Positions 9,766 through 64,000 of a stretch of DNA of 64,000 bases are shown here, piece after piece. Positions within the stretch are counted from its first letter, which is position 1; each line of letters opens with the position of its first letter. The translations under genes and the position numbers were made by a program. The notes below the pieces were generated by a model. That model did no database searches. It was given only the letters and a program-made list of their open reading frames with translations, and was not told the DNA's origin. This DNA is from Rhodosporidiobolus odoratus (Eukaryota > Basidiomycota > Microbotryomycetes > Sporidiobolales > Sporidiobolaceae): assembly GCA_034387635.1 (NCBI GenBank), contig JAOANU010000005.1, positions 558,001 through 622,000 of the forward strand, read 5' to 3'.

Positions 9766-10030
9766 TGTAAGGCTAAGTGCCTCACCCAAGGTCGGAAAGG
9801 ATATAGGAGGAGAAAAGATGAGACACGGATCCATGTTGAAGGATGAGCACGGCGCATTCTGGTTCTTCTCCTTACGCTCACGCTTACCGGAGAACGAACC
9901 AGGTGTGTGACTCTCTTTATAGCTCTCCTTACGCTCACGCTTACCGGAGAACGAACCAGCAATACACTTGGTTCCCTTGTCTACCGTTGCAGCGTCGAGT
10001 CGAGTGTTGGTCGTTATAGGCGACCTTCCA
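9766..10030 (+). repeat. 5' LTR of element 1
   Basis: 265 bp, TG...CA ends. Contains two near-identical 36-nt units (about 9890-9925 and 9940-9975), each able to fold as a hairpin because CTGGTTC/TTCTCC and GGAGAA/GAACCAG segments are complementary. Nearly identical to the copy at 14819-15083. Confidence 0.95.
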
Positions 10031-10248
10031 CTTTTTGACAAGGCTTCAAGCTGGCTAGCGGTACTCGTACGGCCACCAGACGACTGGGCTACACCCTCCC
10101 CGACCCCTCTATCTACATCAACGAGCGTCGGCGACAACCTAGTTCACTCAACTCCGATCTCTCTCCCTCCGACGAAGACGACGCAGCCGCCTCTTCTTCC
10201 TCCGAGCCCGAAGATCTCTTAACCTCACAGTCACGGAAGCGTATCAAC

Positions 10249-13200
10249 ATGGTCACCCTTCTCTCCTCCACCACTTCGACACTGTACCAACCCGGCAAGG
10301 CTCCCCTTCTCCTCGACGATTCTCCCGCCGGTCTCACCGCCTTCACCCGTGCGGCCCGCCTCTTCTTTCGTTCCAAGAAGATTACCGAGGATGAGGACAA
10401 GATCGCCTACGTGGGTGCGGGTTTAGCGTCTTTCCAAGACCTTTACCAGTGGTACCTTTCGGCGGCGGAGGAGCACGAGGCGAAGACGTACGATACCTTC
10501 CTCGTCGAGCTTCAGAAGCGCGCTCTTCCCCGCAATTACATCTGGGAAGCTTGTGGACGGATTCGTACGGCGAAGCGAGGGGAACGGGATTTCGAGGATT
10601 GGTTGGAGGACATGCGCGCCGAACACCTCTCGTTAACGGAGAAGATCCTCCCCACGCGCGACTTCGTCGAGTCGCTACTCTACGGAATGGACGGCGAATT
10701 ATCCTCGGTTCTACGTCAAGGGTCGGCACTCAAGAACTCAGGTTTACATCGCAACGATATGGAACAACTCGCAGTCTCCACTACGGCCATCGTTTATCCT
10801 CCCCTCCTCGACTATCTCGCCTTCGATCGAGAGGCGCGCGACGAATGGAGCAAGATCGCCGCTCGCCGTCGTTCCAATGCGGCTCAACTACGGTCCCTCA
10901 GCAAGAAGACGGCGGCACTCTCCCTTCCCTCTTCTTCTCGTACCCCATCTGTCTCGGCTCGTTCCTCGTCAGCTAGAACGGCGTCCAGCAACGTGACGAC
11001 AACGGACAATCCCGCGGCGAAGAATGGAGGCGGTCGGACTCGCCCTAACAAGCTCACGGAGTTGGAGAAGGACTGGCTCTCGGCTAATCAGGGATGCTTC
11101 CGGTGCCGCAAGGCCAACGTGGATCATCGAGCCGAGGGTTGTACGGACTGGCCCGCCCCCGACCACGTCGTCCCAGTTCCTCCAGGATGGACCAAGGACA
11201 CCCTCGCCGTGACCCCAACCACCACCACCCGGGTCGGCATCGCCGCAGTTCACGGTTTCGACGATGAAGAAATCGACCTCCCGGAGTCGTTGGCGCAAGA
11301 TTCGGATTCGGACGCGTACGCTCTTCCTCCCCTTTCCTTCCTTGTCGGTTCGAGACAGTCTGGTCTTCTCACGGACGCTCTCGCTGACTCTGGTTCATTC
11401 GTCTCGCTTATCGCAGATAAGCTGGCGTCTAGACTGGGGTTAGTGAGGCAGAAGTTGAGTAGACCTAAGACTTATCGACTTGCAATTGAAGGAGGAGAAG
11501 AGTCAAAAACGATCACGGAGTTCGTCCGCGTCCCGCTTCAACTCGCCAATGGTAGCTGGTCAGCCGGACCGACTACTCTCCTCGTCGCTCCGCTCAAAGA
11601 ACCGTTCGGTATAATTCTCGGCACTCCCTTCCTTCGGCAACACCGGATCTCTATCTCCTTCGGCCACGATGTCCAACTTGTCATCCCTCAACCGGCTCCC
11701 CTGCTTCCGATCGATCTCTACGCTGAAGCCGAAGGACCGTTGACGCAACGTGAAGCTCTGGAAGAGTTGGACGACGCCGAACGCGACGACATGTTGGACT
11801 CGGCGATGGAAACGATGATTGCTCGGGTAGAAGCAAGGACGGACGAAGAGAAGGAAATGGCGGAGAGAGCAGCGAGAGTCATGGCCGACTACGACGATCT
11901 CTTCCCCGACGTACTTCCCGCCCTCACTCTCGATTACCTCAAGCGGACGGCGACTCGACACAAGATTAGGTTCGTCGACTCGGGCAAGACGCACAACATG
12001 CGCGGCTTCGACGTCCCTCGCAAGTGGAGGGAGCGCTGGAAGAAGATGCTGGACGAGCACCTTGTTTCAGGCCGACTTCGACCCTCCACATCACCCTTCG
12101 CCTCCGCCGCCTTCATCATTCCGAAGAAGGACCCGACGGCCGATCCGCGATGGGTGAACGACTATCGTGTCCTCAACGCGAATACGGTCAAGGATAGAAC
12201 GCCGCTTCCGGTCCCCGACGTGGTTCTAGGGGACGCTGCTTTGGCGAAGGTTTGGGGCAAGATAGACATGACTAATGCCTTCTTCCAAACGCCGATGTCT
12301 GAGGAGGATATCGCCAAGACGGCGATCAAGACGCCTTGGGGACTTTTCGAATGGACAGTGACGCCTCAAGGGCTCTGTAACGCGCCTGCGACGCATCAAG
12401 CGCGGGTCAACGAAGCATTACGGCATCTCATCGGAGTATGCTGCCAGGCCTTCGTTGACGATATCATCATTTATTCCTTGACTCTCGAGGAGCATGAGAA
12501 GAACTGTCGGGCGGTACTTGACGCATTACGAGCAGCAGGACTTTATTGTTCTCGCAAGAAGACTGACTTGTTCACTCTTTGCACAGACTTCCTCGGGCAC
12601 ATCATCTCTCGCGAAGGGCTTGAGGCGGATCCATCCAAGGTAGAGAAGATCAAGAACTGGACAACACCTACTACGGTGACTCAGGTGCGCGGCTTTCTTG
12701 GCGTTGTTCAGTACTTGACGAAGTTCATTCCGTCGTTGGCGGAGCATACTGCGGTGTTGACCCCCTTAACGAGGAAGGGTCTCACGAGGATCGATCATTT
12801 ATGGCGAGACAAGGAGAGGGCGGCTTTCGAGGCGGTCAAGAGGATTGTCACCTCGTTGCCGGTCCTTCGTCCCATCGATCAGGACTCGGACGAGCCTATA
12901 TGGCTTATGACGGATGCTTCCAAGGTCGGCATTGGCGCGGTACTCTTGCAGGGGAAGGACTGGCGCACAGCTTTACCCTGCGGATTCTACTCGCGTCAGT
13001 ACATCGCCGCGGAGAAGAACTACCCCACGCATGAGCAGGAGCTCTTGGGCGTGGTAGCAGCTATGAAGGCCTGGCGGTTGGATTTGTTGGGGGTCAAGTT
13101 TCAGGTTCTTACGGACCACGATACCTTGAAACATTTCAAGACTCAGTTGACGCTGTCGAAAAGACAGGCGCGATGGACGGAAGTTCTGGCGGACTACGAT

Positions 13201-14783
13201 TTTGAGATATCGTACATTCCTGGTCCACAGAATGCGGTAGCGGATGCTCTAAGTCGTTTCTCTTTCGGAGACAACGAAGGGGCGGTAGCGGTGAACGGGA
13301 TATCAGCAGTTTCTCTCTCTCCTTCCTTTGTGAAGAGTCTGGGCAGTAGCTACGCTGATGACCCTTTCTGCTCACAGCTCCTGAAGAATCTGGCGTCGTC
13401 TCCAGGTTTCTCACGAGGGGCCGAGGGTCTCCTTCTTTTTGAAGGCGCAAGGATTGTGGTTCCCAAGGTCAATGAGGTGCGCGAAACTCTCCTTCATGAC
13501 GCGCATGACGCGCTTGGACATCTGGGTCCCAGGAAGACGCTGTCGAGTCTCTCGCAGTCGTTCTACTGGCCTGGCATGTCGAAGGACGTTTTGCGTTACG
13601 TCTCTTCATGCGACGGATGTCAACGGTTCAAGGCGAGGACCACGAAGCGGGCCGGGTTGCTGCACGCACTTCCGGTACCGCTTCGACCGTTCGAAGACGT
13701 GGCTTTGGATTTCGTGGGCCCGCTCCCTCTTCGGAGGGGAAGGACATGTTGCTCACAATTACGTGTTGTTTAACGGGGTACTCTCGTCTCTTAGCGTGCC
13801 GTTCAAAGGACGGCGCTAAGGAGATCGCGGACTTAGTTTACCGTGGGTGGTTCGCGCTGTTCGGTCTTCCGAAACGTTTGGTCTCGGACAGAGACAAGCT
13901 TTTTACTTCACGTTTCTGGCGCTCTCTCCATGAGCAAGTGGGTGTAAAGTTGCAGATGTCGACCTCCTTCCACCCAGAGACGGACGGGCGAAGCGAGCGG
14001 ACCAACAAGACGGCGGTTCAAGTTTTACGACAGTATGTCTCTCGTCAACAGAAAGACTGGGTACGTTATCTCTCTTCGGTTGAGTATTCGATGAATACTG
14101 CCGTGAACGTCTCTACAGGTTCGTCACCCTTCGAGGTCGTTCTCGGTTACAAACCGTCCCTTCTCCCCCCTTCTTCTTCCATGCCCTCGCCCCTCCCCGC
14201 CGTCGAGGAAGTCATCGCGGAGCGCAAGAGTAAGATTGAGGAGGTCAGGGACGCCCTCGCGGCGTCTAAGGTCAGACAAGCGGAACAGGCGAACAAGCGA
14301 CGCGGTCAGGATCAGGGGTTTAAGGTCGGTGACTCGGTGATGGTGGATTCAGCAGACAGGAGGGCGAGGTACAAGACGCGGGGCGGCGATACCCGGGCGG
14401 CAAAACTCTTTCCTCGCTGGGACGGTCCTTATACAGTCAAGGCGGCTTTCCCCGACACTTCAACTTATCACCTCGACCTTCCTTCCTCCGACCATTCTCA
14501 CCCCGTCTTCCACTCTTCTAAACTCAAGGTCTACAACATCAACGATCCTCTTCTCCACCCTAACCGCGAACCCCCTCGACCGGAACCGATGGATGTGGAG
14601 GGGGAGAAGGAGTATATCGTCGAAGCGATTTTGGACGAGAAAGGGAAAGGGCGGAGTCGGAAATACCTGGTACGATGGGAAGGGTATCCAGATTCGGATA
14701 ATACGTGGGAAGCGGCGGCGAACGTGGAGGATACGGAAGCGCTGGATGTGTGGGAGGAAAGGAAAGGGAGGGGGGAAGTTTAG
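10249..14783 (+). pseudogene. Gag-pol of element 1, frameshifted in integrase
   Basis: Single gag-pol frame from the ATG at 10249, interrupted near 13731-13745. Gag is followed by a knuckle CFRC...DH....C (near 11095), the protease motif ADSGS (near 11385), reverse transcriptase with FVDD (near 12453), RNase H with MTDAS (near 12908), and an integrase HHCC zinc finger with HDALGH and CDGCQ. At the start of the integrase core one base is missing relative to element 2, so translation shifts and stops at 13773. The remaining integrase and the chromodomain (IVEAILDEKGKG, YLVRWEGYPDSDNTWE) continue in the next frame to 14783. The core also reads TITCCLTGY where element 2 has TVTDRLTGY, so the first DDE aspartate is absent. 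This copy should not make active integrase. Confidence 0.93.
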
Positions 14784-14800
14784 CGAGAAGGGTTCTCGCT

Positions 14801-14818
14801 GGAAGGGGAGGGGGAGGG
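14801..14818 (+). other. Polypurine tract of element 1
   Basis: An 18-nt all-purine run (GGAAGG, then G-runs broken by A) ends exactly at the first base of the 3' LTR, the expected place and composition for the plus-strand primer. Confidence 0.85.
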
Positions 14819-15083
14819 TGTAAGGCTAAGTGCCTCACCCAAGGTCGGAAAGGATATAGGAGGAGAAAAGATGAGACACGGATCCATGTTGAAGGATGAG
14901 CACGGCGCATTCTGGTTCTTCTCCTTACGCTCACGCTTACCGGAGAACGAACCAGGTGTGTGACTCTCTTTGTAGCTCTCCTTACGCTCACGCTTACCGG
15001 AGAACGAACCAGCAATACACTTGGTTCCCTTGTCTACCGTTGCAGCGTCGAGTCGAGTGTTGGTCGTTATAGGCGACCTTCCA
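14819..15083 (+). repeat. 3' LTR of element 1
   Basis: 265 bp, identical by eye to the 5' LTR except one A/G difference. The element ends here at ...TTCCA. Confidence 0.95.
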
Positions 15084-48573: not shown

Positions 48574-50350
<1,777 letters not shown>

Positions 50351-51693
50351 GCTGTCGGACTACGCTGAGTACGCGAGTTGTTGATGTTGTTGGTATAACT
50401 GGAGGGCGAGTGAGGTCGATCTCGCGGTGAGCAGGGCCAAGGAGGGCGTATGGGTGTTTTATGGGGTTCTCTAGAGCGAGTCAGATGCTGACGTACGCTT
50501 CACGAGCTAAGCGACGAGAGCCGTATGCGGTTTAAGATCAACCTCGCCTCGCTGAGCTCGCATTTCATGCATTTTGGGGCCCGTCTCGCCCGGGCCTGAC
50601 ACACCCAAAACAGGACCAACTACAACAGCCTGCATCCACGCTGCACCTCCTCTCCATGCCGGCTGTTCCTGCTCCTTGGCAAGCGCCGACGTCCCCAATG
50701 CACGCATCAGGGCGAAGATTCGGTGTTGACCAGCGCTGGTCGTCGGATCGAGTTTACCATGGAGGATATTCAAGAAAGCGAGAGAAAGGAGACAAGGGAA
50801 GGGGGACGTTGAGAAGGCGAAACGCTGGAGCAGAGCTGCGGCAGACGCATCAAAGTAAGCTTGTGGGAGACTGAGAGACTAGGGCAGAACAGCGTACGAG
50901 GCACAGGTGAGCCATTCCTTCTGCGGGGAGCATGTGGAGGCAGATGGAGGGCTTGACTGCAGGCAGCAAAGAAGATGAGCCAAGCAGTCACCTGCAGTGT
51001 AGAGTAAGAATGTCACACTTTGGGACTCAGTGTTCCTTCCTCATCTCCCTCCGGCCTGCGATACTCCGAAGCTTTCGCGACATCTGTCAAATCGAGATGA
51101 TCAGCCTACACAAGCTGAGGGGGAAAAGAAGGAAAGAGCACGCACGTTTGTCCTCATAAAGAATGAAGGTGATTAGGGTGGCAGACTAGGGTTCAAGCGA
51201 AGTACCGAGTCGGTGAGTGTAGGAAGAAAAGCAGAAGAGAAAGAAAATCAGCTTTTCATGTGCGTGAACTCGCTCGGCAGTGCTGCGCACAGGCACGCTC
51301 TGTCAGCTGCGCGTATATCGGCTGCGGGCTGCGCGTAAATCCGAGGGCGACTGCAGTGCACCTCCTATCCCCTCTCCCGTCATCAACCCAGTCCTTTCCG
51401 TAACTTGTCCAGCTTCCCTCGCGCAACCTCACTTCAGTACCCATTGAGCTCTACCACGACTTGAGAAGGTCCCACGAACGTGTGTGATACCTCCCCCTCC
51501 TTCTCCTCCCCCGCCGAGCCTGATCTCCCGTGTACTTTTCATTCCTTACCATCTCGATTGCTCCTTTACTGCAGACCACACAGCCCAAATCCTCATCTCG
51601 ACCATACTCCAGTTCCCTCCATTCGACCCTTTCCTCCCTCTCTCTCATTCCCCATCTCTCACCCTCTTGCCCCACCTGTTCACTCCAGGCGAG
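50351..51693. other. 1.3 kb with weak coding signals only
   Basis: Between KRR1 (minus) and the coiled-coil protein (plus). Apart from the small exon pair at 51013-51185, only scattered frames (minus 50507-50773, minus 51256-51444) are seen, without domains. Confidence 0.35.
51013..51185 (-). CDS. 3' exons of a possible small unrecognised gene
   Basis: Two exons, 51146-51185 and 51013-51083, join across a GTGCGT...GACAG intron to read SATLITFILYEDK then HVAKASEYRRPEGDEEG and a stop. A short hydrophobic segment followed by a charged tail is typical of small mitochondrial or ER membrane proteins. No start codon or upstream exon could be fixed. Confidence 0.3.
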
Positions 51694-52182
51694 ATGTCTC
51701 AGCCCACAACTCCACCCCTCGCTCAGCGCATTCCTTCAACGGCTGTAGAGCCCTCAGCCATGCAGCCTGCGACGCCTCAGCATAGGCCACACTCCGCCTC
51801 GCCTTCTGTTTCTCCTACTCCGCCCGCTATTCCCCTTCACCAGGACCAGCTGTTCACACCCGTTCCCATGACCAATCAGCAGCTTATTGCGTCCCTTAGT
51901 GACCTTCTTCCGCACAACAACCCCCAGACCAGCCGCGTCCTGGGTGCGGTTCAACGCCTTGTGCAACAGCATGAACACCTGTCGCGCCAAGTCTTGGGTC
52001 TCAACGCCGATCTCACAGAGCAGGCCGAGCAGATTGAAAGTATTGAAGAACTCTTTGGGTCGGCGCTCGATGAGATAGACAGGGAGAATTTGCCCGAGGA
52101 CATGCACGAAGCCTTTTCCACATTCCTTCGCTTGCGCCCGCAGATGGAGGCGTTCGTACATGAGCATGAAGCTCGCGATTGA
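51694..52182 (+). CDS. Small coiled-coil protein, family unknown
   Basis: Single-exon frame from the ATG at 51694, 162 aa. The first 55 residues are Pro/Thr/Ser-rich; the rest is strongly helical (LIASLSDLLPHNNPQTSRVLGAVQRL, then heptad-like LNADLTEQAEQIESIEELFGSAL and an acidic ENLPEDMHEAFSTFL). Probably cytosolic and oligomeric. A Mediator- or kinetochore-like small subunit is conceivable but nothing decisive is visible. The frame stays open upstream to 51484, but the ATG right after a pyrimidine-rich stretch is the best start. Confidence 0.6.
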   Translation: MSQPTTPPLAQRIPSTAVEPSAMQPATPQHRPHSASPSVSPTPPAIPLHQDQLFTPVPMTNQQLIASLSDLLPHNNPQTSRVLGAVQRLVQQHEHLSRQVLGLNADLTEQAEQIESIEELFGSALDEIDRENLPEDMHEAFSTFLRLRPQMEAFVHEHEARD

Positions 52183-52561
52183 CTTCCTCCTTCCTGCATT
52201 TCCTCCCCTCCTCCCGTCTCCCCTCCCTTTCAGCCGCCTCCTGATTCTTGACGATTTTCTTCTCCTTGACTCATACCCTCAACCTTATACCTTTACTTCA
52301 ACACTACGGGCTTGGTGAATGTGCACAGGGGGTAATGGTGTACAGTTCAGTCGAAGGGTTCGGGAATGACAGGCAGTGTAGCAACTAGCATACGATGTGC
52401 AATCTTTCTTCTGCTTCTCCTCATATCGACCCGAGACCTCATTACACAAAGGAGTACGTAAGAGAAGCAACAAAGCAAAAGCAGCGAGAGAGAGGACCTG
52501 AGCGCGCAACTAAAGAAAGGCAACTACATGAACAAAATGAGGGGTGTGAAGAGGTATACAA
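52183..52561. other. Intergenic, convergent 3' ends
   Basis: About 380 bases between the coiled-coil gene and the stop of the FEN/TnpB-like gene. No gene, and no inverted repeat matching the other side of that gene was found. Confidence 0.5.
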
Positions 52562-53288
52562 CTAAGGTGGCTTGGGCTTCTTCCCCTCCCGTCCGACTGG
52601 GTACCCCATTTCTGCCATCTCGGCAAAGCGCTGTCGGAGAAGGTGGTAGTCGAGTCCCAGGCGGATGTAGGTCCAGAAGACTGCCGTGATGTTCTGCGCA
52701 CCGACAACATCCCGATCTTCCACCTCGCCGCAGCCTGGGCAACACTTCAAGCGCATGAGTTCATCCTTGCCGAGGAAGAGCGAGCTAAGGCTGCAGTCAT
52801 CCATGACAAAAAAGCTCAACTTGCTACCCTCGACCATGACAAGACGAGAGAGAGTAGTACGTACACATCGTCTCCATGCTCCTCGCGGCAATGAATGTCC
52901 GTACACATACTGCTTGTCCTGAACTCGTCCGCGAACACGATCTCGACCTCGTTGATGTCGCTTCGAGCTCCTGCGGCCTTCTTGATCGCATTGACGAAGA
53001 CACACTGCTTTGACCGAGCGTACCCTCGAGCATCCAAGCCACCGTCTTGACCAAACACGAAGATGAGATCGCGCAATTTCGGTGAAGGCGGATAGATTTG
53101 GTTCAAGAATTCGGCGGCAGTCATGTGGAGCTTGCTCTGGTAAACCTGTTTCGTTTTGAAGTCGAATCGATCCTCTGCAAAAAAAACTGTGTGAGCTAAA
53201 CACTCTGAGTGGAGGTGATTGAGGCACTCGCCTTCGTAACCTCGTATTGCTGGCCCTGACCCTTTCTCCTCCGGCCTCCCAAACTTGG
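52562..53288 (-). pseudogene. C-terminal, TnpB/Fanzor-like part of the interrupted FEN-TnpB gene
   Basis: Continuation of the gene at 58595-63305, cut off by LTR element 2. Exons 53241-53288, 52865-53174 and 52562-52790, with donors GTTACG and GTACGT and acceptors TTGCAG and CTGCAG. In joined numbering the segment covers residues about 1464-1658: FGRPEEKGSGP, then SKLHMTAAEFLNQI, FVFGQDGG, a RGYARSK stretch and VEIVFADEFRTSSMC. C1570 and C1575 with C1600 and C1603 form a zinc ribbon, followed by EDRDVVGAQNI. TnpB and Fanzor nucleases share exactly this order: DE-x-TS before the first Cys pair, CxxC, then DRDVNAA carrying the last RuvC Asp. The protein ends REGKKPKPP. Confidence 0.75.
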
Positions 53289-53533
53289 TGTAAGGCTAGT
53301 GCCTTACTCACGGATGGAAGAGTGAAGAAGGAAGGAACGGAATTGTTGAGTGATGGTAGTCGAACCTCCGGAGGCAACATCTGGTTCTCTCCTTACGCAT
53401 TTGCTAACGGATTGAACCAGGTGTGTTGCTCTCATTTTGTAGCCTTACGCATTCGCTAACGGATTGAACCAGTAATACACAACGGTTCTCCTAAGCTAGC
53501 GCCCAGTGTTGGCGGATCCATACCCGCCTTCCA
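53289..53533 (+). repeat. 5' LTR of element 2
   Basis: 245 bp. Contains two copies of a CCTTACGCATT.GCTAACGGATTGAACCAG-like unit; CTGGTTC and GAACCAG are perfect inverted 7-mers around the first. Nearly identical to 58350-58594. Confidence 0.95.
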
Positions 53534-53763
53534 CTTTTTTTTAAGGATCAACCGCAACTGCCAAGCTGGCTTACGGTACACGGTCATACTACAGTCGCCA
53601 CTCGCTACCCCTCATCAACCCCTCCAACTACCCGCACGAGCGAGCGACTCCTACTCCTCATCGTTCAACTCAATCTACCCCAGAGCACCCCGATTCTCCC
53701 TCTACCGGCTCAGCTTAAGGCTCAGCTCCACCTTCACCAACGGTAACGGCACGGCATCTCCCT

Positions 53764-56700
53764 ATGGCAACTATTCCTACCCTCCTCCCGGCGTACCAGC
53801 CGGGCAAACCTCCCTTCCTCCTCAACGCCTCCCCTTCCGGTATCAGCGCCTTCACACGCTCGGCACGTCTCTACTTCCGACAGAAGAAGATCGATACGGA
53901 CGAGGACAAGATTTCCTACCTCGGAGAAGGTCTCGGCGCATTCCCGGAACTCTACAACTGGTTTAACGCCTCAGCGGAGATCCACGGGGCCAAGACGTAC
54001 AAGGCCTTCATCGCCGACCTTCAGAGGAAGGCTTTGCCGAGGGACTACATCTGGGAAGCGAAGGGTAGAATTAGGAGCGCGAGACAAGGCGGACAGGATT
54101 ATGAGGAATGGTCGACCATGATGAGGACGGAACATCTGGCGTTGACGGAAGCGGTCATGACGACGAGGGATTTCGTCGAGTGCCTGCTTTACGGCATGGA
54201 CGCCGAACTCTCGGTAATCCTCCGCAGCGGAACCTCGCTCAAGAATTCGGGCTTCCATCAGGACGACATGGCCAACTTAGCGTTCCCCGCCTCTACCCCG
54301 GTCGTCTACACCACCACCGTCGATTACTCGGCCTTCGACGTCGAAGCGAGGAACGAATGGTCGAAGATCGCCTCACGCCGACTCGCCAACGCCGCTCAGC
54401 TCAAATCTTACGCTAAGAAGTCGGCCTCTACTCCTACCTCCAACAACCCTTCCACCCGTCCTTCTACCCCGTCGAAACCGAACAGTACGCCGAACAACGC
54501 GACGAAGAAGACTGGCGGCGAGGTACCGACTACTACGGCGCGAACGGCGAAACTCACGGAGTTGGAGAAGGATTGGCTTAATGCTACTCAAGGGTGTTTT
54601 AGGTGTCAGCAGTCGTGGGTGGACCACTCGTCGGCCGACTGTCGTACGTGGCCCGCACCAGGCTACGTCGTCCCCGTTCTGATGGGCTGGGATCGAAGCA
54701 AGGACGTCCCTTCAACCGTCAAACCGTCGGCCGCTACCGAGGAATCTAAGGTCGTCACCGGCTTCCGCGCCCTTCACGTATACGGCAGCCACAGCGAGAT
54801 CGACCTCCCGGAATCGTTGGCGCAAGGAACCGACTCTGAGGAAGAAGGGTGCGTCCTTCCTCCGCTCTCTTTCCTGGCGGGTTCGAGAAGAAGAAGTCGC
54901 TTAGCAGACGCCCTCGCTGACTCTGGCTCTGGATTGTCGCTCATCTCAGATAAGCTAGCAACCAAGTTAGGGTTAGTGAGGAAGAAGCTGAGTAGACCGA
55001 AATCTTATCGACTTGCAATTCAGGGAGGAGACGAGGTTAAGACGTTAACGGAGTTCGTCCGAGTACCTCTGAAACTCGCGAACGGATCATGGGAGGCAGG
55101 AGAGACAACGCTCGTAGTGGCACCACTTGAACCTCCCTTCGATATCATCCTCGGTACCCCTTTCCTTCGTCAACACCGCATCTCGATCAACCTTTACCCG
55201 GAACCCTCTCTACTTATCGCGCAACCCTCACCTCTCGAGCCGCTCGACTTATACGCAGACCTCGAAGGACCCGTGACGAGGTTGGAAAGGATGGAGCAGA
55301 TGCCGGATGAGGAGCGGGACGAAGTGATTGGAGCGACGGTGGAACGGTTGGTGGCGAGCGTTAACGTTCGGACGAACGAGGAAAAGGAAATGGCGGAAAG
55401 GGCGGCGAAGGTCATGGCGGACTACGAAGAATTGTTCCCTTCGACTCTCCCCGCTCTCACCGCCGACTACCTCAAGAAGACGGCTACGCGACATCGGATC
55501 AAGCTCACCGACATCGACCAGGTCCACAACCAGCGTGGGTTCAACGTCCCGCGGAAGTGGCGTGAGAAGTGGAAGCGGATGCTGGAAGAGCACATCGCGG
55601 CAGGTCGACTCCGACCATCCACCTCGCCCTTTGCATCCGCCGCCTTCGTCATCCCCAAGAAGGATCCGGAAGCTGACCCTCGATGGGTCAACGATTACCG
55701 TGGACTCAACAGCAACACCGTCAAAGATCGAACTCCCCTCCCTATTCCTGACGAGGTCCTCGCCGACGCCGCCCTCGCCAAGTATTGGGGGAAAATCGAC
55801 ATGACGAACACATTCTTCCAGACACCGATGGACGAAAACGACATCGCCAAGACCGCGATCAAGACGCCCTGGGGCTTGTTCGAATGGACCGTCATGCCTC
55901 AAGGATTATGCAACGCACCGGCAACGCATCAAGCTCGAGTCAACGAGGCGCTTCGACATCTGATCGGCGTCTGCTGTCAAGCATTCGTCGACGACGTCAT
56001 CATCTACTCAAGCACCTTGGAGGAACACGAGCGAAATTGTCGAGCGGTTCTTTCCGCTCTCAGGGATGCAGGTCTTTACTGTTCACGCAAGAAGACTGAC
56101 CTCTTTACATTGCGGACAGACTTCCTTGGTCATGTTATTTCCCGCGACGGTATCGAAGCCGACCCGAGCAAGGTGGACAAGATCAAGAATTGGACGCGTC
56201 CGCGTACTGTTACCCAGGTGCGCGGTTTCCTTGGTATCGTCCAATACCTCCAAAAGTTCATTCCGCAACTCGCGGAACACACTGCGGTCTTGAACCCCTT
56301 GACGAGGAAAGGTCTGACCAAAGTGGACCACCTATGGACGGTGAAGGAGGAGAGGGCGTTCGAGGCGATCAAGAGGATTGTTACCTCTTTACCCGTACTC
56401 AAACCGGTGGACCAGGACTCGGGAGTCCCCATATGGCTCATGACGGACGCTTCCAAGGTGGGCATTGGAGCCGTCCTGCTTCAGGGGGAAGATTGGAAAA
56501 CCGCACATCCCTGCGGGTTCTACTCCCGCTAATATATCGCGGCGGAGAAGAACTACCCAACGCATGAACAAGAACTACTGGGGGTCATCGCAGCGCTAAA
56601 GGCCTGGCGGATCGACCTCCTTGGAGTACGGTTCAGAATCTTGACGGACCACGACACCCTCAAACATTTCCAGACACAAGGGACGCTCTCGAAACGTCAG

Positions 56701-58386
56701 GCGCGATGGACGGAAGTCCTTGCCAATTACGACTACGAGCTGTCTTATGTGCCTGGAAAGTTGAACGCGGTGGCGGACTCGATGAGCCGTTTCTCCTTCT
56801 CAGACGAAGCGGCGGTAGCGGTCTGTGGGATCTCCAGTGTCTCTCTCTCAACTTCTTTCTTAGAATCTCTGAGCCGAGGCTACGCTGAAGATCCTTTCTG
56901 TTCACAGGTACTTTGCAATCTCGAATCGTCGCCGGCGTTTGAGATGCGCGAAGGTACACTCTACTTTGAAGACTCAAGATTGGTGGTCCCGGACGTAAAA
57001 TCGGTGCGCGAGACTCTTTTACACGACGCGCACGATACCCTCGGACATCACGGGCCCAAGAAAACCCTAGCGAGTCTAGCGGCGTCTTTCTACTGGCCTG
57101 GGATGTCGAAGGCAGTGCTGCAGTACGTGGGGTCGTGTGACGGATGCCAAAGGCACAAGTCACGGACGACAAAGAGGGTCGATCAGCTACATTCGCTACC
57201 GATCCCTCCTCGAGCGTTTTCAGACATCGCACTAGACTTCGTGGGCCCTCTACCATTATCGGAGGGGAAGGATCTCTTACTAACGGTCACCGACCGTCTG
57301 ACGGGTTACATTCGACTCCTTCCGTGTCGTTCAAAGGACGGCGCAAAGGAGATTGCGGAAACGGTTTATCGAGGGTGGTTCTCTCTTTTCGGACTGCCGG
57401 AACGTCTAGTCTCGGATCGAGACAAATTATTTACCTCTCGTTTCTGGCGAGCCTTGCACGAACGTATCGGAGTAAAGTTGCAGATGTCTACAGCCTTTCA
57501 CCCCGAAACAGACGGTCGCAGCGAGCGGACGAACAAAACGGTGGTCCAGGTGCTTCGACAAGCAGTCACGAGGCAACAACGGGACTGGGTGAGTCATCTC
57601 TCTTCTACCGAATATGGGATCAACTCTGCCGTCAATGCCTCTACAGGACGCGCGCCGATCAATCTCGTATTAGGTTTCGTTCCCACCTTGTCCCCTCTTC
57701 CCTCCTCGCCTCCCTCATCCCTACCCGCCGTCGAATCCCTCCTCGCGACTCGGACAGCAAACATCAAGGAAGCTCGCGATGAATTAGCGGCGGCGAAGGT
57801 CCGACAGGCGGAACAAGCGAACAAGAAGCGCGGAGCGGAAGTGGAGTTTAAGGTGGGCGATTTGGTGATGATGGACTCGTCGGATAGGAGGTCGAGGTAT
57901 AAGTCGCGTGGGGGGGATGTGAGAGCGGCCAAGTTATTCCCGCGGTGGGATGGCCCATACCCGGTGAAGACCGCCTTCCCGTCGACTTCCACCTATTGAC
58001 TCTCTCTCCCTCCGTCGGATCGTGCACACCCAACATTCCACGCCTCCAAACTCAAACGATACATCCCGAACGACGCGGCAATCTACGCCAACCGGGAGCC
58101 GCCTCGACCGGAACCAATCGACGTCGACGGAGCCGAAGAATTTACGGTCGAAGCAATCGTGGACGAGAAAGGGAAGGGGAGGACGAGACACTTTCTGGTA
58201 AAGTGGGCAGGCTATCCGGACTCCGACAATACGTGGGAGCCGCTATCGAACGTGGAGGACACGGCTGCGATGGATACGTGGGAAATGGCGAAGGAAAGGG
58301 GGGAGGGGGTTCAGCAAAGAAGGTCTTCGCTACTTGGGGAGGGGGAGGGTGTAAGGCTAGTGCCTTACTCACGGATGGAAGAGTGA
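53764..58386 (+). pseudogene. Gag-pol of element 2, two premature stops
   Basis: Frame from the ATG at 53764 (MATIPTLLPAYQPGKPP). Gag, knuckle CFRC...DH....C (near 54592), protease ADSGS (near 54916), reverse transcriptase FVDD (near 55987), RNase H MTDAS (near 56440). A TAA at 56530-56532 falls in RNase H where element 1 has Gln. The same frame then carries the rest of RNase H and the integrase zinc finger. The core has TVTDRLTGY, VSDRDKL and ETDGRSERTN (DDE residues visible). A TGA at 57997-57999 falls just before the C-terminal region. The chromodomain (FTVEAIVDEKGKG, FLVKWAGYPDSDNTWE) follows in frame. The frame ends 37 bases inside the 3' LTR. Confidence 0.93.
58336..58349 (+). other. 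Polypurine tract of element 2
   Basis: G/A-only run ending at the first base of the 3' LTR; same composition and position as in element 1. Confidence 0.85.
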
Positions 58387-58594
58387 AGAAGGAAGGAACG
58401 GAATTGTTGAGTGATGGTAGTCGAACCTCCGGAGGCAACATCTGGTTCTCTCCTTACGCATTCGCTAACGGATTGAACCAGGTGTGTTGCTCTCATTTTG
58501 TAGCCTTACGCATTCGCTAACGGATTGGACCAGTAATACACAACGGTTCTCCTTAGCTAGCGCCCAGTGTTGGCGGATCCATACCCGCCTTCCA
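58350..58594 (+). repeat. 3' LTR of element 2
   Basis: 245 bp, three substitutions relative to the 5' LTR, followed by the CTTGG target duplication. Confidence 0.95.
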
Positions 58595-61500
58595 CTTGGC
58601 TACCCTCTTACTGGCCCTCTTCGACACCGTATCGAGGGTCGCGCTCTTCACCAGGGCACAACGACCAGGCTCCTCTCCCACCATGGGCTCGTAGTAACCC
58701 ACCAGAGCCCGACAGAAACCGCCATCTCTCCCCCAAACCGCCGCTGAATCCTCGCTGAGAGCTCCCTTCCCATCCTTTACGTCGATCTTGAGCATGTGTC
58801 GGCACTTTTCAAGGAGAAGTGGACACTGTTGCTCCTTGACTCCCGTCAACATCGTCAATGGGCGGCCGTCCGGAATCAAGGGGAGAACGGAAGAGCGAGG
58901 GAAACCGCGAGGATGAAGGGTACGCGTGTCGGAGCCGTCTGGGATTAAGGCGTGGGTCGGATTGGCGGCGAGATGCTTGAACAGTTTTGGTGCTCAATTG
59001 ATGGCGAGGCTGAGGAATTTGTGAACAGTGTCTACTGTGCTGGTGGGAGAGCGGATTGCGTCGACGGTCGATTGGAGTGGGTGTTTTGTGTCGAGCATGA
59101 GGTAGTTCACTCTGAATGCATCGAGAGAGAAGGAGCCGTAGAGGAGGTCGGTCTTGTGGGCACCGGGAAGCAACCACTTCATGAGTATGAGACGTTCCTG
59201 TCAAACTTTTGTTCTGAGGGTAGTTCGCGGCGCTTCGTCACCCAGTCCTACCAATTGCCGCACCTCTATCATCGCTTGATCAAACGCGGTTGCCAAGGCT
59301 TCTGGGGGTTTTGACCGGCGCAGGAGGATGTACGGATCCGGTTGACCTGGCGGTGGATGTAGGAGGATTTCAGGAACAGAGGCAGGGAGGAGTGGTAGGG
59401 GAGCATGAGGTGTGTCGAGATCTGGGGTGAAAGCGCGTCTCGCGTTGATGATCGCACTGGCGTTATTGGACTGACGAAGGGTATCGAGGACCTGTATGCT
59501 TTCGGGTTGGAAGTGATTGTGGGTCGGGTTGTAGCGCTGTTGAGCTCGAGTGGCCGTCAGCCCTCAGCCGGCACTTGCAAGATCGGAAGGGATACAGACT
59601 CACAATCGGCTGAACCAACAGCGAATTCCCCCTTAACCAAGCAACATCGCTCTCGCTTACCTCACACTCATTTCCCTCCCTCTCATTCTCCGACTCCAGC
59701 CTGACCACGCGCTCCACATACCGCATCGTCGTCTGTACTGTACCTGCCCGCAAACGCCCCTTGCTCTTCCCTTCCACAATCGATCGCAACGAATTCCCCT
59801 CCAGCTCAGCATCCCGGAGTGCCGTCTCCACCTCTTTCGTTCGCCAATCTGCGTTCCATTCCCCCAACCCAACCCAGGTCTGCATACCCGCCCCAGCGTC
59901 AATCCGCTCCGCTTCGTCTGCTGCCGCTTCCAGATCCGCTTCCTCCGCCTTCTTCCCCTTCCCCTTTCCCTTCCCCTTCCCCACCGCTACCTTCCTCGCC
60001 TTCTCATTCTCGAAAGACCTTTCAACCTGTCGACGATCCTCGATCCCAAACTCTGCCGCCACACGTACCCACACCCGATGACGAGGGTCGACTCGCTGAG
60101 AACCGGCGTTCGTGCTGGCCAGGCGTTTGAGGTGGCTGCTGTCGTAGTCGTTTCCGACCTGTCGAGCGAGAGCGAGCTGGAGCAGACATGGAATCACACT
60201 GCTAAGCAAGGCGGCGATCTGTTCAGTGGCTGCGAGGTGTAGGTCGCTGGTTGTGGGCAGAACTGTCGCCATTCCCGCCTGCAAGTCAGTGTCGAGTTTC
60301 TGACGGTAGGGCGCAGGGACTGAGGTTGAGTTGAGAAGGCTCCAGGCGAAATCGGCAAAGTGCTTGACCGCCTGGTTCAGCCCGCGCTCGCTGCGGCTTA
60401 GTGCACGGTTCAGCACCGAGATTGCCTCGAGCGCGGCCGGCTCCAGAACAAAGGGCGGGGCAGGAAGGAGAGGCGAAGGAGTTTGATCGGTGCCGAGATC
60501 TTGCGAGCTACTACGGTGAAGCGTGGGAAAGATAGTGTCGTTCAGTAGTGCAACTGTTACGGCGGGGGTGAGGAGGAGAGACCGGATGAGAATGTGCAGC
60601 GCCTGCTTGGTCGACTGCAGCTCGCTGACTTCCCAGTTGGTCGTCATCTGCTGAATGAGCGGGTCAAGATGGTGGCGTAATGGAGCACTCTCAGCGAGTG
60701 CTGCCATGGTTGCAGAGTACATAGGGTGCGACGTATGACGCTCGATGGCGTCAATGAGCTGGATCGGGAGCTGCAATACGCCAAGTCCTTGTCAGCTTCC
60801 TACTCTAATCTTGAGGAGGCGCAGGGAACGGCGACTGACTCCACGCTGCGTCAAGCCTTGAACATAGCTCGCCGGCTCTCGCTGACAGCCCTCTTGCATA
60901 ATCACCTCCACCTTCTGCCACTCCTCCGTCCCGGCCGCCACCCCTAAAGACGCCCGCAAGACCTCTGCCATACTTTCACCTCGTAGCCGACCATTCGGTT
61001 TTGACGTCATGACGTTACAAACACGCTTGAAAAAGTCGTCGGCTTGACCTTCGCCCATCAAGAGGAGATGGGAGTGCAGCGGGTTGAGTTGGCGAAGGAC
61101 GGAGATCGTGATGCTGATGATCCCATGAAGGAGAGGAGCCGCGAGCGTGGTCGTGAATGCGTGGAGGAGGGCGAGGTAGGGTGCGACAGCTGATTGGACG
61201 ATGCGGGCGATGCTGCCGGTCAAGGTCTTGCAGTCCAACGTCTTCATCAAGCGCCTCGGATCCGTCGACGAGGCTACCACCTCCGTAGTACCCTTGCCGG
61301 CCTCCTGCTCTCCTCTGGGCACACCCGCTGCGAGCTTCTGCGCCGTTCTCATCCGTTTGCGAGCAGTGTCGGGAGCGGGGGCCGGTCGCTTCTTCTTCTT
61401 CTGCTGCTCCTTGTCCTCTCCTTCCCCCTCCTTTCCCTGATCTCCTGCACCTCGGTCTTTGCTCCCGGAACCCCCGGGGGCCTGCTTCTGGTTGTTGAGG

Positions 61501-63305
61501 TCGTCCTTCGCGGCAAGGACCGAGCAGAGGAGGCGGTTGAGGTCTCGTAGTGGTGTCGACTGAGCGTAGCTGAGGCGAACGTTGTCGGCGGGGGGAGGTC
61601 TAGGTTGACGGTGCCGGCGAGATGTATAGGCGACGCTGGGGCGGTCTGGGTTTGGAATGACGGGGTTTGCAGTCGGGGGGGGGGGACGAGTACCGGGAAA
61701 ATCAGGGCGAGGAGGTCGAGTGTGCCGCCTTCCCCCGGATGCGACGCGGTTCTGGCGGGCAGGTCGAGCCCGACCGCCTTCGAGCGTGAGGTTACGGGTA
61801 ATGACCGGCTGAGTTCGAGTGGACGGGCCGAGACCTGGGGAGTTGGTCGTTGAGCCGGTATTGCTCTTGACAACCGCCCAAGTCCTCCCGCTGCGCAGCT
61901 GCTCGAACACCTCACTCGCCAACTCATGCTTGCTGACCAACTCCTCCTTCCGTACCTCCCCGCCGGTAAAGGTCCTCAGCGCAAGCTCGAACTTGGCAAC
62001 GTCGCCCCGTAGCTGCAGTTGCCCTCCTCGACGAGATCCCCGACTCAACACGTGACGCCACTCCTCCCAGACCTGCTCTGCGGCCTGCGGATTCCGACGG
62101 TACACCTCGAGCCAGTCGTACTTGGCTGGTCCCGTAACTGTCTCGATAGCCTGCAACGCATGCGCCGTTCCAAACCCCACCAAGAACCCCCCCTGCCTGT
62201 AGTCCTGCCCCGCGAGAAGAGCGATGACGGCGCCGGCTCTTGGTTGATCGAGGACTCCAAGCTCGGTCGCGAGCTTTGATCGGGAGAAGAGGCTGACCAG
62301 CTTCTTGTCCTGTCTCAACATGCCAGTCGTTGTCCGTGTGAAGTGTAGACCGTTGAAGATGTTGTCGCTGTCACCGCCAATGACTGCGACGTCTTCTTGA
62401 TAGGCTGAGGCGCGCTCGAAACTCGTCTTCAAGTCGGCGAAGGGAGTGACAAGTGGAAGTTGTGTAGGGAGAGAGGCGGGAGTGGAGAGTGGAGGGGGGC
62501 GACCTTGAACGAGAGCGGTGACAAGCTCGGCGGTAGCGGGATCGCCTTCATGGCTGGGCGTCGAGAACGTGCACATGCCGTCGAGGGCGTGGAAGAGCTG
62601 TGGAAGATGGTGTCAGAGAATGCTGCTGAGGGAACATCGAGATGGGGCATACCTCCTGCTTGGAGCAGTCCTGCAGATCTTGCAGACTTGGCGCCGGCAT
62701 GTAGAGGGAGGAATAGGCGGGAAGGGATTTGAGCGCTTGACGACCGTCGCCGCTGTGAAAGAGCAAGTCTCCCTCGTACTTCCCTAGCCGAGCATCTCCA
62801 CTGCCCTTTCCTCTGACCTCCCGCACCCCTGCATCGAACAACGCAAACACCTTGCCCATCACTCCCGTTATCCTGCCTTTCTCGGATGCCTCCTTCGCCC
62901 GACTACGTTCTTCCGCACCCGGCAGGATGATCAAGAGGCCCGTCGGCCAGACTGACCGGATTGCGACAACAAGGTCGCAGATCGCCTCGAGCACTGCACA
63001 GGCGACGGTGTCGGGGTAGGAGTCGGAGCGCCAAAAGGGGTCCTGCTTGCGGAGGTGGCCGGCACTGGTGTGGAAGGTGGAACCAGTCGAGCTGCCCATA
63101 TCGACCAACACGACTGAAGCAATGCATAGTTGAGTATAGCGTGTATGCGAGCGAACTGAGGGATGCACTCACCATCTTTCGCACCATCCTCCTCCAGAAT
63201 TGCCCTCATCAATCTCGAGCCTTGACTAGAATCCTGGTCATTGGTCTGAAAGGAGAGCACCGCCTGGGCTTGGTGTGCGAGGTCGGCAAAGTCGGAGATG
63301 CCCAT
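58595..63305 (-). pseudogene. FEN/XPG-like nuclease joined to a TnpB/Fanzor-like C-terminus, interrupted by element 2
   Basis: Start at 63303-63305 (MGISDFADLAHQAQAVL). Exons: 63173-63305, 62653-63113, 60840-62597, 59604-60770, 59264-59536 and 59197 down to the element. With the exons at 52562-53288 and one CTTGG copy they total 4,977 nt, a multiple of three, with every junction in phase. The N-terminus resembles FEN/XPG nucleases: VLVDMGSS (D49), HEGDPATAEL (E215, D217; compare GEADAQ), GGDSDN (D274, D276) and AGQDYRQG (D330; compare GCDYLPG). The acid corresponding to FEN1 D86 was not found. The middle (about 400-1180) is unrecognised, with basic stretches and a Lys/Gly repeat. From about 1270 comes AFRVNYLMLDTKHPLQ and a KIDVKDGK segment that could hold the first RuvC Asp. 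One TGA (58994-58996) lies in frame unless a 60-nt intron 58976-59035 is removed. Function unknown; transposon-derived nuclease is the working guess. Confidence 0.7.
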
Positions 63306-63616
63306 GATGAGCAGGGGTAGGGAGGAGGAGGTTCGGGTTGCAGGGGGAAGGAAGAAGGGAGAGAGATGGTGAGCAAGGAACGGCTCCGGCTGGTGATGGC
63401 AAGGCTTATAGGTAGCGTCTTGTTGTAACAGTCTCTGAGATAGCAACAGGGGAAACAAGCGGTATCATTTGAGGAAGAGAGGGATGCTCAACTCGACTTC
63501 TCACTGTCACTACTTGTTTGTCGCAAGACTGTAGTATGATTGTGGGAGGTGTGTCTCACTCAATGTTCATACCGCTACTGTAAGCGGGGCCGAACAGATT
63601 ACACAACTATGAGAAA
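63306..63616. other. Promoter region of the FEN-TnpB gene
   Basis: 311 bases between its start and the stop of the next minus-strand gene; no gene seen. Confidence 0.5.
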
Positions 63617-64000
63617 CTAAGGCCACAAGTTCCCCCCAAAGTTGATCAATCCAACCTCCCCGTCTCCGAGCCAATCCTCGATCTCAATCCCTTTCCACTC
63701 TGCCCGAATGATCTTGCAGAGCATATTCTCGAGCAGGATCGGACACGAAAGGTCGATGTTGAGAGAGAGTAGGGCCTGCAAGGAATGGATCAGCACGGGT
63801 CAAGCGGAGCTCGAGATCCAGCCCCAGGTCCTCAGAGCACTATGATCGAATACACCACGCTAGTACACGGAGGTAGGAAAAAGGGGACGTACCGCGCGTA
63901 TACCGTTGGAGATTCCCCCCTCTGCCTCACTCGCATTCATGGCGTCGAAGAACTGTCGGGAGGCCTCCTCGGTGGCAGCATCGACCTCCTTCCTCGTGCT
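63617..64000 (-). CDS. 3' end of an unrecognised gene (runs off the window)
   Basis: Two exons, 63893-64000 and 63617-63776, joined over a GTACGT...GCAG intron. They read EVDAATEEASRQFFDAMNAS and GISNGIRA, then ALLSLNIDLSCPILLENML and EWKGIEIEDWLGDGEVGLIN, ending NLWP. The in-phase splice and the amphipathic helices support real coding. No family recognised. Confidence 0.6.

What the first reader, a model, noticed from the sequence alone, without database searches (positions are those of the whole stretch)
52562..63305. A ~1,658-residue protein joining a FEN/XPG-like nuclease to a TnpB/Fanzor-like C-terminus
Seen: nine exon blocks on the minus strand join in one frame that closes exactly when the LTR element is removed. 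The N-terminal 330 residues carry the acidic pattern of FEN/XPG (VDMGS, HEGD, GGDSD, GQDY). The last 100 residues carry ADEFRTS, CX4C, CX2C and EDRDV in the order found in TnpB/Fanzor. Known: TnpB and Fanzor are RNA-guided RuvC nucleases spread by transposons, and Fanzors are reported to use a relocated glutamate, which the DEFRTS Glu could be. Inference: either a new large transposon-encoded nuclease or a domesticated fusion. I know of no described protein of this form.
Basis: partly seen in the sequence, partly recalled or inferred. Interest (0 to 1): 0.95.

Follow-up and report, generated by a model that had tools for sequence, protein, structure and literature searches.

The report
Broken Fanzor-like gene with FEN domain
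In a red-yeast genome the window holds one of three damaged copies of a long gene whose protein appears to join a flap-cutting nuclease domain to the RNA-guided nuclease type called Fanzor or TnpB, a combination I could not find described, although each of the three copies has been broken by retrotransposon sequence.

Summary
Real and mostly as described, with corrections. The gene is on the minus strand (63305-52562). Its C-terminal part is a TnpB/Fanzor-type RuvC nuclease: Pfam TNB PF07282 over its cut-off, and the DEFRTS Glu lies on the DEYKTS Glu of SpuFz1 in a weak PDB match. The N-terminal part is probably a FEN/XPG nuclease, nearer GEN1/RAD2 than FEN1: a GEN1/RAD2/XPG profile ranks the C9 copy first and the window copy second of 457 frames. 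Six of seven acidic positions are kept here, seven in a paralog. Both halves lie collinear at three loci, so this is one gene; C9 keeps in one frame what the window LTR element separates. dN/dS between these copies is 0.355 over 1,567 codons: past constraint.

Corrections: the window copy also has an in-frame stop, so LTR removal alone does not close the frame. The three FEN-bearing copies are each broken by LTR sequence. No terminal repeats were seen; C5 and C9 share a segmental duplication. RuvC-I is D-x-G, not DPG. A second subfamily (948 aa) lacks the FEN part. The searches made found no description of such a fusion. RNA guidance and flap cutting are inferred.

The parts
63173..63305 (-). 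exon 1, begins MGISDF (FEN-type MG start)
   Evidence: the C3 paralog has a frame that begins MGVKYG
62653..63113 (-). exon 2: first half of the FEN/XPG-like domain (VDMGS; ILPG where FEN has FDG)
   Evidence: C3 paralog has CDFNA and VMFDSD here
60840..62597 (-). exon 3 (could end at 60804): second half of the FEN/XPG-like domain (HEGD, GGDSD, GQDY, then FG-x-A-x-AL), then linker
59604..60770 (-). exon 4: middle region, homologous to the C3 paralog
59252..59536 (-). exon 5
58616..59197 (-). exon 6 up to the LTR element; RuvC-I candidate WGRDGG; in-frame TGA at 58996-58994
   Evidence: no stop at this place in the C9 copy
53287..58604 (+). Ty3-type LTR element inserted in the gene; LTR repeat 53287-53536 / 58348-58597 at 99%
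   Evidence: the right end is approximate, judged by eye
52865..53286 (-). stretch after the LTR element: ADEFRTS (alternative RuvC-II Glu) and CX4C; probably holds one more small intron, about 53227-53175, judged by eye
52562..52790 (-). last exon: CX2C, EDRDVVGAQNI (RuvC-III), stop

Best explanation
A decayed member of a small gene family of a Rhodosporidiobolus-like red yeast that encoded a two-nuclease protein of about 1,650 residues: an N-terminal FEN/XPG-type (GEN1/RAD2-like) domain, a long middle region, and a C-terminal TnpB/Fanzor-type RuvC domain with its zinc-ribbon TNB insert. Shown: the gene structure, homology along the length across three loci, the TNB domain, the conserved D-x-G / Glu / Asp and Cys residues, past purifying selection, and breakage of the three FEN-bearing copies by LTR sequence. 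Inferred: that the RuvC half bound a guide RNA and cut DNA as TnpB and Fanzor do, and that the FEN half trimmed the 5' flap or branched DNA made during repair of that cut, so that one protein both opened and processed a target site. The window copy itself should make no full-length protein.
For: TNB PF07282 on the C part, E 8e-8, 32.8 bits, cut-off 26.3, and a match in 5 of 5 family members. The A4 profile against 177,635 PDB sequences gives only 4 matches at E up to 10, all weak: two are LaTranC (E about 0.02), one is the S. punctatus Fanzor (E 1.5) with DEYKTS aligned to DEFRTS, one is an unrelated SKP1-like protein (E 0.45). FEN half: a GEN1/RAD2/XPG profile ranks C9 1st (E 8.9e-5), window 2nd (E 0.001) and C3 7th (E 3.6) of 457 frames, aligned from the DxD motif to the GxDY stretch; hhalign against the mixed FEN-family profile P 0.0068, reached by 0 of 60 column shuffles. 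Acidic positions conserved between paralogs 32% identical; C3 adds MG start, D and FDSD, and a genome search with that C3 piece finds only itself and the C9 and C5 copies (E 0.002 and 0.04). One gene: window N aligns to C3 34-841 (window 149-1046), E 2e-33, and the M and C pieces align further on in the same C3 model; C9 holds both sides of the window LTR site in one frame. dN/dS 0.355 over 1,567 codons.
Against: No Pfam or NCBIfam hit for the N part; the A1 profile found no FEN in PDB; a FEN1-only profile does not find it, and hhalign with FEN1 alone is reached by 15 of 60 shuffles, with the GEN1 set by 1 of 60. C3 reaches only E 3.6, rank 7, with the GEN1 profile and E 4.8, rank 4, with the mixed one; its 5' piece is not found by either profile. 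Ten pairwise shuffle tests against single FEN-family proteins are mixed, best 3 of 500, worst 279 of 500. AlphaFold2 on single exons gave useless confidence, mean pLDDT 32.6 and 40.1. RuvC-I is D-x-G and not DPG. The window copy lacks the FEN FDG aspartate. Only one genome was examined; no RNA, guide RNA or activity data. Two protein searches found no relative (one search scored only the 7,986 candidates sharing most words).
Confidence: 0.72

Rival explanations
1. The C part is a genuine TnpB/Fanzor-like RuvC protein, but the N part is not a FEN/XPG nuclease; the acidic motifs are coincidental or belong to another fold.
For: No database family match for the N part, none in PDB, FEN1 profile negative, C3 5' piece not found by the FEN-family profiles, AlphaFold2 uninformative.
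Against: C9 and window copies rank 1 and 2 of 457 with a GEN1/RAD2/XPG profile; the DxD, GxDY and FG-x-A-x-AL blocks are conserved in the C3 paralog and in the order of GEN1; the C3 5' piece supplies an MG start and FDSD.
Confidence: 0.18
2. Two neighbouring genes, a FEN-like one and a Fanzor-like one, read together by mistake.
For: No RNA evidence; the 948-aa subfamily exists without the FEN part.
Against: Open spliced frame through the middle with dN/dS of 0.22 to 0.51 in each of the eight stretches compared; same order at three loci; window N matches C3 across the FEN/middle junction (149-1046).
Confidence: 0.06
3. The gene is the cargo of a DNA transposon that spread it, as for many Fanzors.
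For: Eight loci in one genome; Fanzor-like proteins were reported in diverse transposable elements (PMC3627910, start of abstract seen in the listing).
Against: The C5/C9 duplication of about 9 kb includes a neighbouring gene and shows no terminal inverted repeats by eye; the C16 copies share 1.7 kb beyond the gene; no long terminal inverted repeats in the stretches tested around one C16, the C7 and the C4 copy. Target-site duplications were not searched for systematically.
Confidence: 0.12

Closest known systems
Fanzor / TnpB (SpuFz1 of Spizellomyces punctatus; LaTranC)
   Same: C-terminal RuvC with split D...E...D, zinc-ribbon TNB domain between RuvC-II and III, alternative Glu with six residues between it and the first zinc Cys (pattern from PMC10711439 passages)
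   Different: CX4C instead of CX2C in the first Cys pair, D-x-G instead of DPG at RuvC-I, more than twice the length of SpuFz1 (638 aa, recalled), extra N-terminal nuclease-like domain, no transposon ends seen
GEN1/Yen1, RAD2/XPG and FEN1 (FEN/XPG 5'-nuclease superfamily)
   Same: MG start, acidic positions in order, GxDY followed by FG-x-A-x-AL, profile similarity to GEN1/RAD2/XPG
   Different: Below all curated thresholds, an insertion between the E-x-E/D and DxD blocks, one acidic position lost in the window copy, fused to RuvC

Membership tests
Fanzor/TnpB | Cas12f1-like TNB zinc domain | tested here: met
   PF07282 32.8 bits vs cut-off 26.3; match in 5 of 5 members at E up to 10; C3's RuvC-II exon alone is below the cut-off (14.8 bits); exon by exon in the whole genome, 5 of 5 places found are of this family and below the cut-off
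Fanzor/TnpB | Alternative RuvC-II Glu, ExxxxxxC | tested here: met
   Invariant in 5 of 5; aligned with SpuFz1 DEYKTSSVC (weak match)
Fanzor/TnpB | RuvC-I motif DPG (near exclusive in Fanzors) | tested here: not met
   DGG (window, C9), DTG (C3), DLG (C16, C4) in alignment A3, D and G invariant in 5 of 5; in A4 MAFFT gapped the C9 Asp, so D is not invariant there. The C16 and C4 copies also have an LDPG nine residues earlier, which could be the motif instead
Fanzor/TnpB | RuvC-III Asp after CX2C | tested here: met
   RD invariant in 5 of 5
Fanzor/TnpB | Guide (omega) RNA beside the gene | tested here: inconclusive
   No Rfam match in 50000-64000; no dedicated test
Fanzor/TnpB | Carried by a transposon with defined ends | tested here: not met
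   No ends seen: C5/C9 by eye, C16/C7/C4 by a search for inverted repeats; target-site duplications not searched systematically
FEN/XPG 5'-nucleases | XPG_N / XPG_I Pfam match | tested here: not met
   no match at E up to 10
FEN/XPG 5'-nucleases | Seven active-site acidic residues in order | tested here: inconclusive
   Six in the window copy, seven over the two pieces of C3, read by eye from alignments; FEN1 residue roles recalled
FEN/XPG 5'-nucleases | Profile similarity to superfamily members | tested here: met
   not with FEN1 alone
FEN/XPG 5'-nucleases | PIN/FEN fold | tested here: inconclusive
   single-exon models, mean pLDDT 32.6 and 40.1

The most novel reading that the evidence does not exclude
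A lineage of fungal RNA-guided nucleases that carries its own flap/junction nuclease: the RuvC half makes the guided cut and the GEN1/FEN-like half resolves or trims the resulting DNA, in one polypeptide related to a FEN-less Fanzor-like protein still present in the same genome.
Probability: 0.45. Interest if true: 0.85.

Novelty: new variant of a known kind. Interest (0 to 1): 0.7.

Why it matters
Described Fanzors and TnpBs have a single nuclease centre (established knowledge, recalled). A natural fusion with a FEN/XPG-type nuclease would show a eukaryote coupling guided cutting to processing of the cut, and would give a starting point for editors that control the repair product. It also shows a Fanzor-like family kept under selection without visible transposon ends, then lost to LTR insertions.

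Tried and rejected
Tried without result: protein search with the window N part (the 7,986 candidates sharing most words) and with the C3 RuvC part (330 candidates), no relative; profile of the N part against PDB, no FEN; viral contig scans with A2 and A1 and a genome-contig scan with A2, no relative; Rfam on 50000-64000, nothing; AlphaFold2 on two single exons, too poor to search folds; an attempt to find further FEN-family genes of this genome in loci L002 and L003 gave nothing usable. Terminal repeats for the C5/C9 copies (by eye) and in stretches of L035, L034 and L032, none convincing.

Literature (PMC library only). Fanzor with TnpB: 54 papers, 25 listed. At least two of Fanzor, XPG, flap endonuclease, PIN domain: 234 papers, 15 listed, none of the 15 holding Fanzor. 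Fanzor with XPG: 0 papers. Fanzor with flap endonuclease: 2 papers; PMC11071296 was read in passages and describes no such fusion, PMC12719977 was seen in the listing only. Fanzor with Basidiomycota: 0. PMC10432273 and PMC10711439 were read in passages; PMC3627910 and PMC11423790 were searched for terms that did not occur, so I saw no text of them beyond the listing.

Rejected: the idea that the C3 paralog is intact. Its 1,398-aa model looked intact, but its first predicted exon lies inside a copia LTR, and its 5' exons lie beyond that element. The DNA-transposon reading is disfavoured for lack of ends.

Full report
What was checked. The window is C5:558001-622000 of an unnamed 24.8-Mb genome in 45 contigs. 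The FEN1 of that genome is 93% identical to that of Rhodosporidiobolus odoratus, a red yeast of Pucciniomycotina. On the minus strand the exons 63305-63173, 63113-62653, 62597-60840 (or 60804), 60770-59604, 59536-59252 and 59197-58616 join in one frame through ordinary GT-AG introns, except for an in-frame TGA at 58996-58994. An LTR element with 99% identical repeats and a Ty3-type gag-pol frame on the plus strand follows, and then the last exons to 52562.

One gene. Searches of the same genome found the two halves together at three places: the window, C9:894993-900585 (76-92% identity piece by piece) and C3 (22-38% identity). In C9 the residues on the two sides of the window LTR site (KRVAK and FGMPEEKG) are adjacent in one frame. 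The window N part aligns with the C3 model over window residues 149-1046 (E 2e-33), the piece before the element with C3 1063-1164 (E 0.003) and the piece after it with C3 1218-1309 (E 1e-18). dN/dS between window and C9 is 0.355 over 1,567 codons: 140 synonymous and 162 non-synonymous changes over 1,148 and 3,541 sites. Exon 1, the stretch between the LTR element and DRFDF, and codons with gaps or stops were left out. In the eight stretches the value lies between 0.22 and 0.51, in the FEN part as well as in the RuvC part.

C-terminal half. The window C piece matches Pfam PF07282 (TNB domain) at 32.8 bits, above the cut-off of 26.3, and 5 of 5 members match it (member 1, from C9, at E 3e-9). 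D-E-F-R-T-S, four Cys, and the R-D of RuvC-III are invariant in 5 of 5. Fanzors are described as having the RuvC-II Glu six residues upstream of the zinc finger (PMC10711439, passage). A profile of three members finds only four PDB sequences at E up to 10, all weak: two LaTranC (about 0.02), an SKP1-like protein (0.45), and the S. punctatus Fanzor (1.5), where DEFRTSSMC lies on DEYKTSSVC. Counting back in the printed chain puts that Glu at 935; with a Fanzor of 638 residues (recalled) at the end of a 1,032-residue chain, this is residue 541, which Saito et al. report as a metal ligand (E541, passage). The RuvC-I candidate is D-x-G, invariant in alignment A3 though not in A4, where the C9 Asp was gapped, with 150 residues between Asp and Glu in C3. 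It is not the DPG said to be near exclusive in Fanzors, so I call the half Fanzor/TnpB-like and not a proven Fanzor. In a genome scan with PF07282 the five places found all belong to this family, each below the cut-off, where exons are scored apart.

N-terminal half. Curated libraries are silent, the A1 profile finds no FEN in PDB, and FEN1 alone gives nothing. A GEN1/RAD2/XPG profile built from the own GEN1 and XPG plus solved relatives (fragments printed) ranks the C9 frame 1st (E 8.9e-5), the window frame 2nd (E 0.001) and the C3 frame 7th (E 3.6) of 457 frames of 120 or more residues from the window and ten 10-kb stretches; a mixed profile that includes FEN1 ranks them 1st, 2nd and 4th (E 0.012, 0.013 and 4.8). 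The alignment runs from the DxD block through GxDY to the G-x-x-x-A stretch that follows. Profile against profile, the mixed family gives P 0.0068, which 0 of 60 column shuffles reach; against FEN1 alone 15 of 60 do, and against the GEN1 set 1 of 60; of 20 other window pieces none scores as high, the best being part of this same gene. Ten pairwise shuffle tests are mixed: best 3 of 500, worst 279 of 500. H-E, P-A, G-G, D-x-D-N, G-Q-D-Y and the FG-x-A-H-A-L block are identical between window and C3 at 32% overall identity. The 5' exons of C3 add MGVKYG, CDFNA and VMFDSD, so the FDG-type aspartate absent from the window copy is present there, although neither FEN-family profile finds that piece by itself. 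Searched against the genome, that piece finds itself and, weakly, the C9 and C5 copies, E 0.002 and 0.04. I put the FEN/XPG assignment at about four in five.

Family and history. Eight loci carry the C part: three with the FEN part (C5, C9, C3) and five where none was found (two on C16, and C6, C7, C4); a ninth place on C1 is weak (E 4.7e-4, five stops). One C16 copy has a spliced frame of 948 residues without a FEN part in the prediction of my own simple gene finder. C5 and C9 share about 9 kb besides the element, including a neighbouring gene, without terminal repeats that I could see, which points to segmental duplication; its left break falls at the edge of a fetched stretch, but the adjoining stretch shows no match. 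The three FEN-bearing copies are each broken: the window by the Ty3 element and a stop; C9 by an LTR-like insert in exon 1, a frame break and a deletion; C3 by a copia element with 95.9% identical LTRs inside the FEN domain. C6 also holds a Ty3-type element, and one C16 copy has one just before its 5' end. Of 69 reverse-transcriptase places over the cut-off (73 listed, lower bounds), three lie in the 10-kb stretches around these loci. By hand, eight stretches of 10 kb in 24.8 Mb would expect about 0.2. This was noticed after the fact, so it is a lead only; the reason is open.

Mechanism, and what is inferred. By analogy with SpuFz1 and TnpB, the RuvC half would cut DNA under guidance of an RNA; no Rfam match lies nearby, and a guide RNA was not tested for in a dedicated way. 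By analogy with GEN1 and FEN1, the N half would cut 5' flaps or branched DNA arising at that cut. Both steps are inference, and the window copy should be inactive. Decay in the three copies argues that the function is dispensable in this strain.

Novelty. Searches in the PMC library for Fanzor with XPG found 0 papers, and with flap endonuclease 2 papers, one read in passages without such a fusion, one seen only in the listing. Protein searches with two different pieces found no relative, but the method misses distant relatives and I had no other fungal genomes to scan, so the distribution is unknown. I rate it a new variant of a known kind.

Noticed in passing
L030:6155-6388 and L062:1632-1874 (C3): A Ty1/copia element with 95.9% identical LTRs splits the C3 paralog inside its FEN domain.
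   Followed up: partly
C5, C9, C3, C6, C16 family loci: LTR-element sequence lies in or just beside five of eight loci of this family; three of 69 reverse-transcriptase places of the genome fall in these 10-kb stretches against about 0.2 expected by a hand estimate made after the fact.
   Followed up: partly
window 50562 to C5:622828; C9:893001-902213: Segmental duplication of about 9 kb shared between C5 and a place about 19 kb from the end of contig C9, including a small neighbouring gene.
   Followed up: partly
window about 9860-15060: A second Ty3-type element in the same window, with LTR-like similarity to the one in the gene (reverse transcriptase at C5:570118-570606).
   Followed up: no
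L032 (C16:492501-502500), spliced frame on the minus strand: A predicted 948-residue Fanzor-like protein without the FEN part, the one copy of the family for which I saw no damage.
   Followed up: partly
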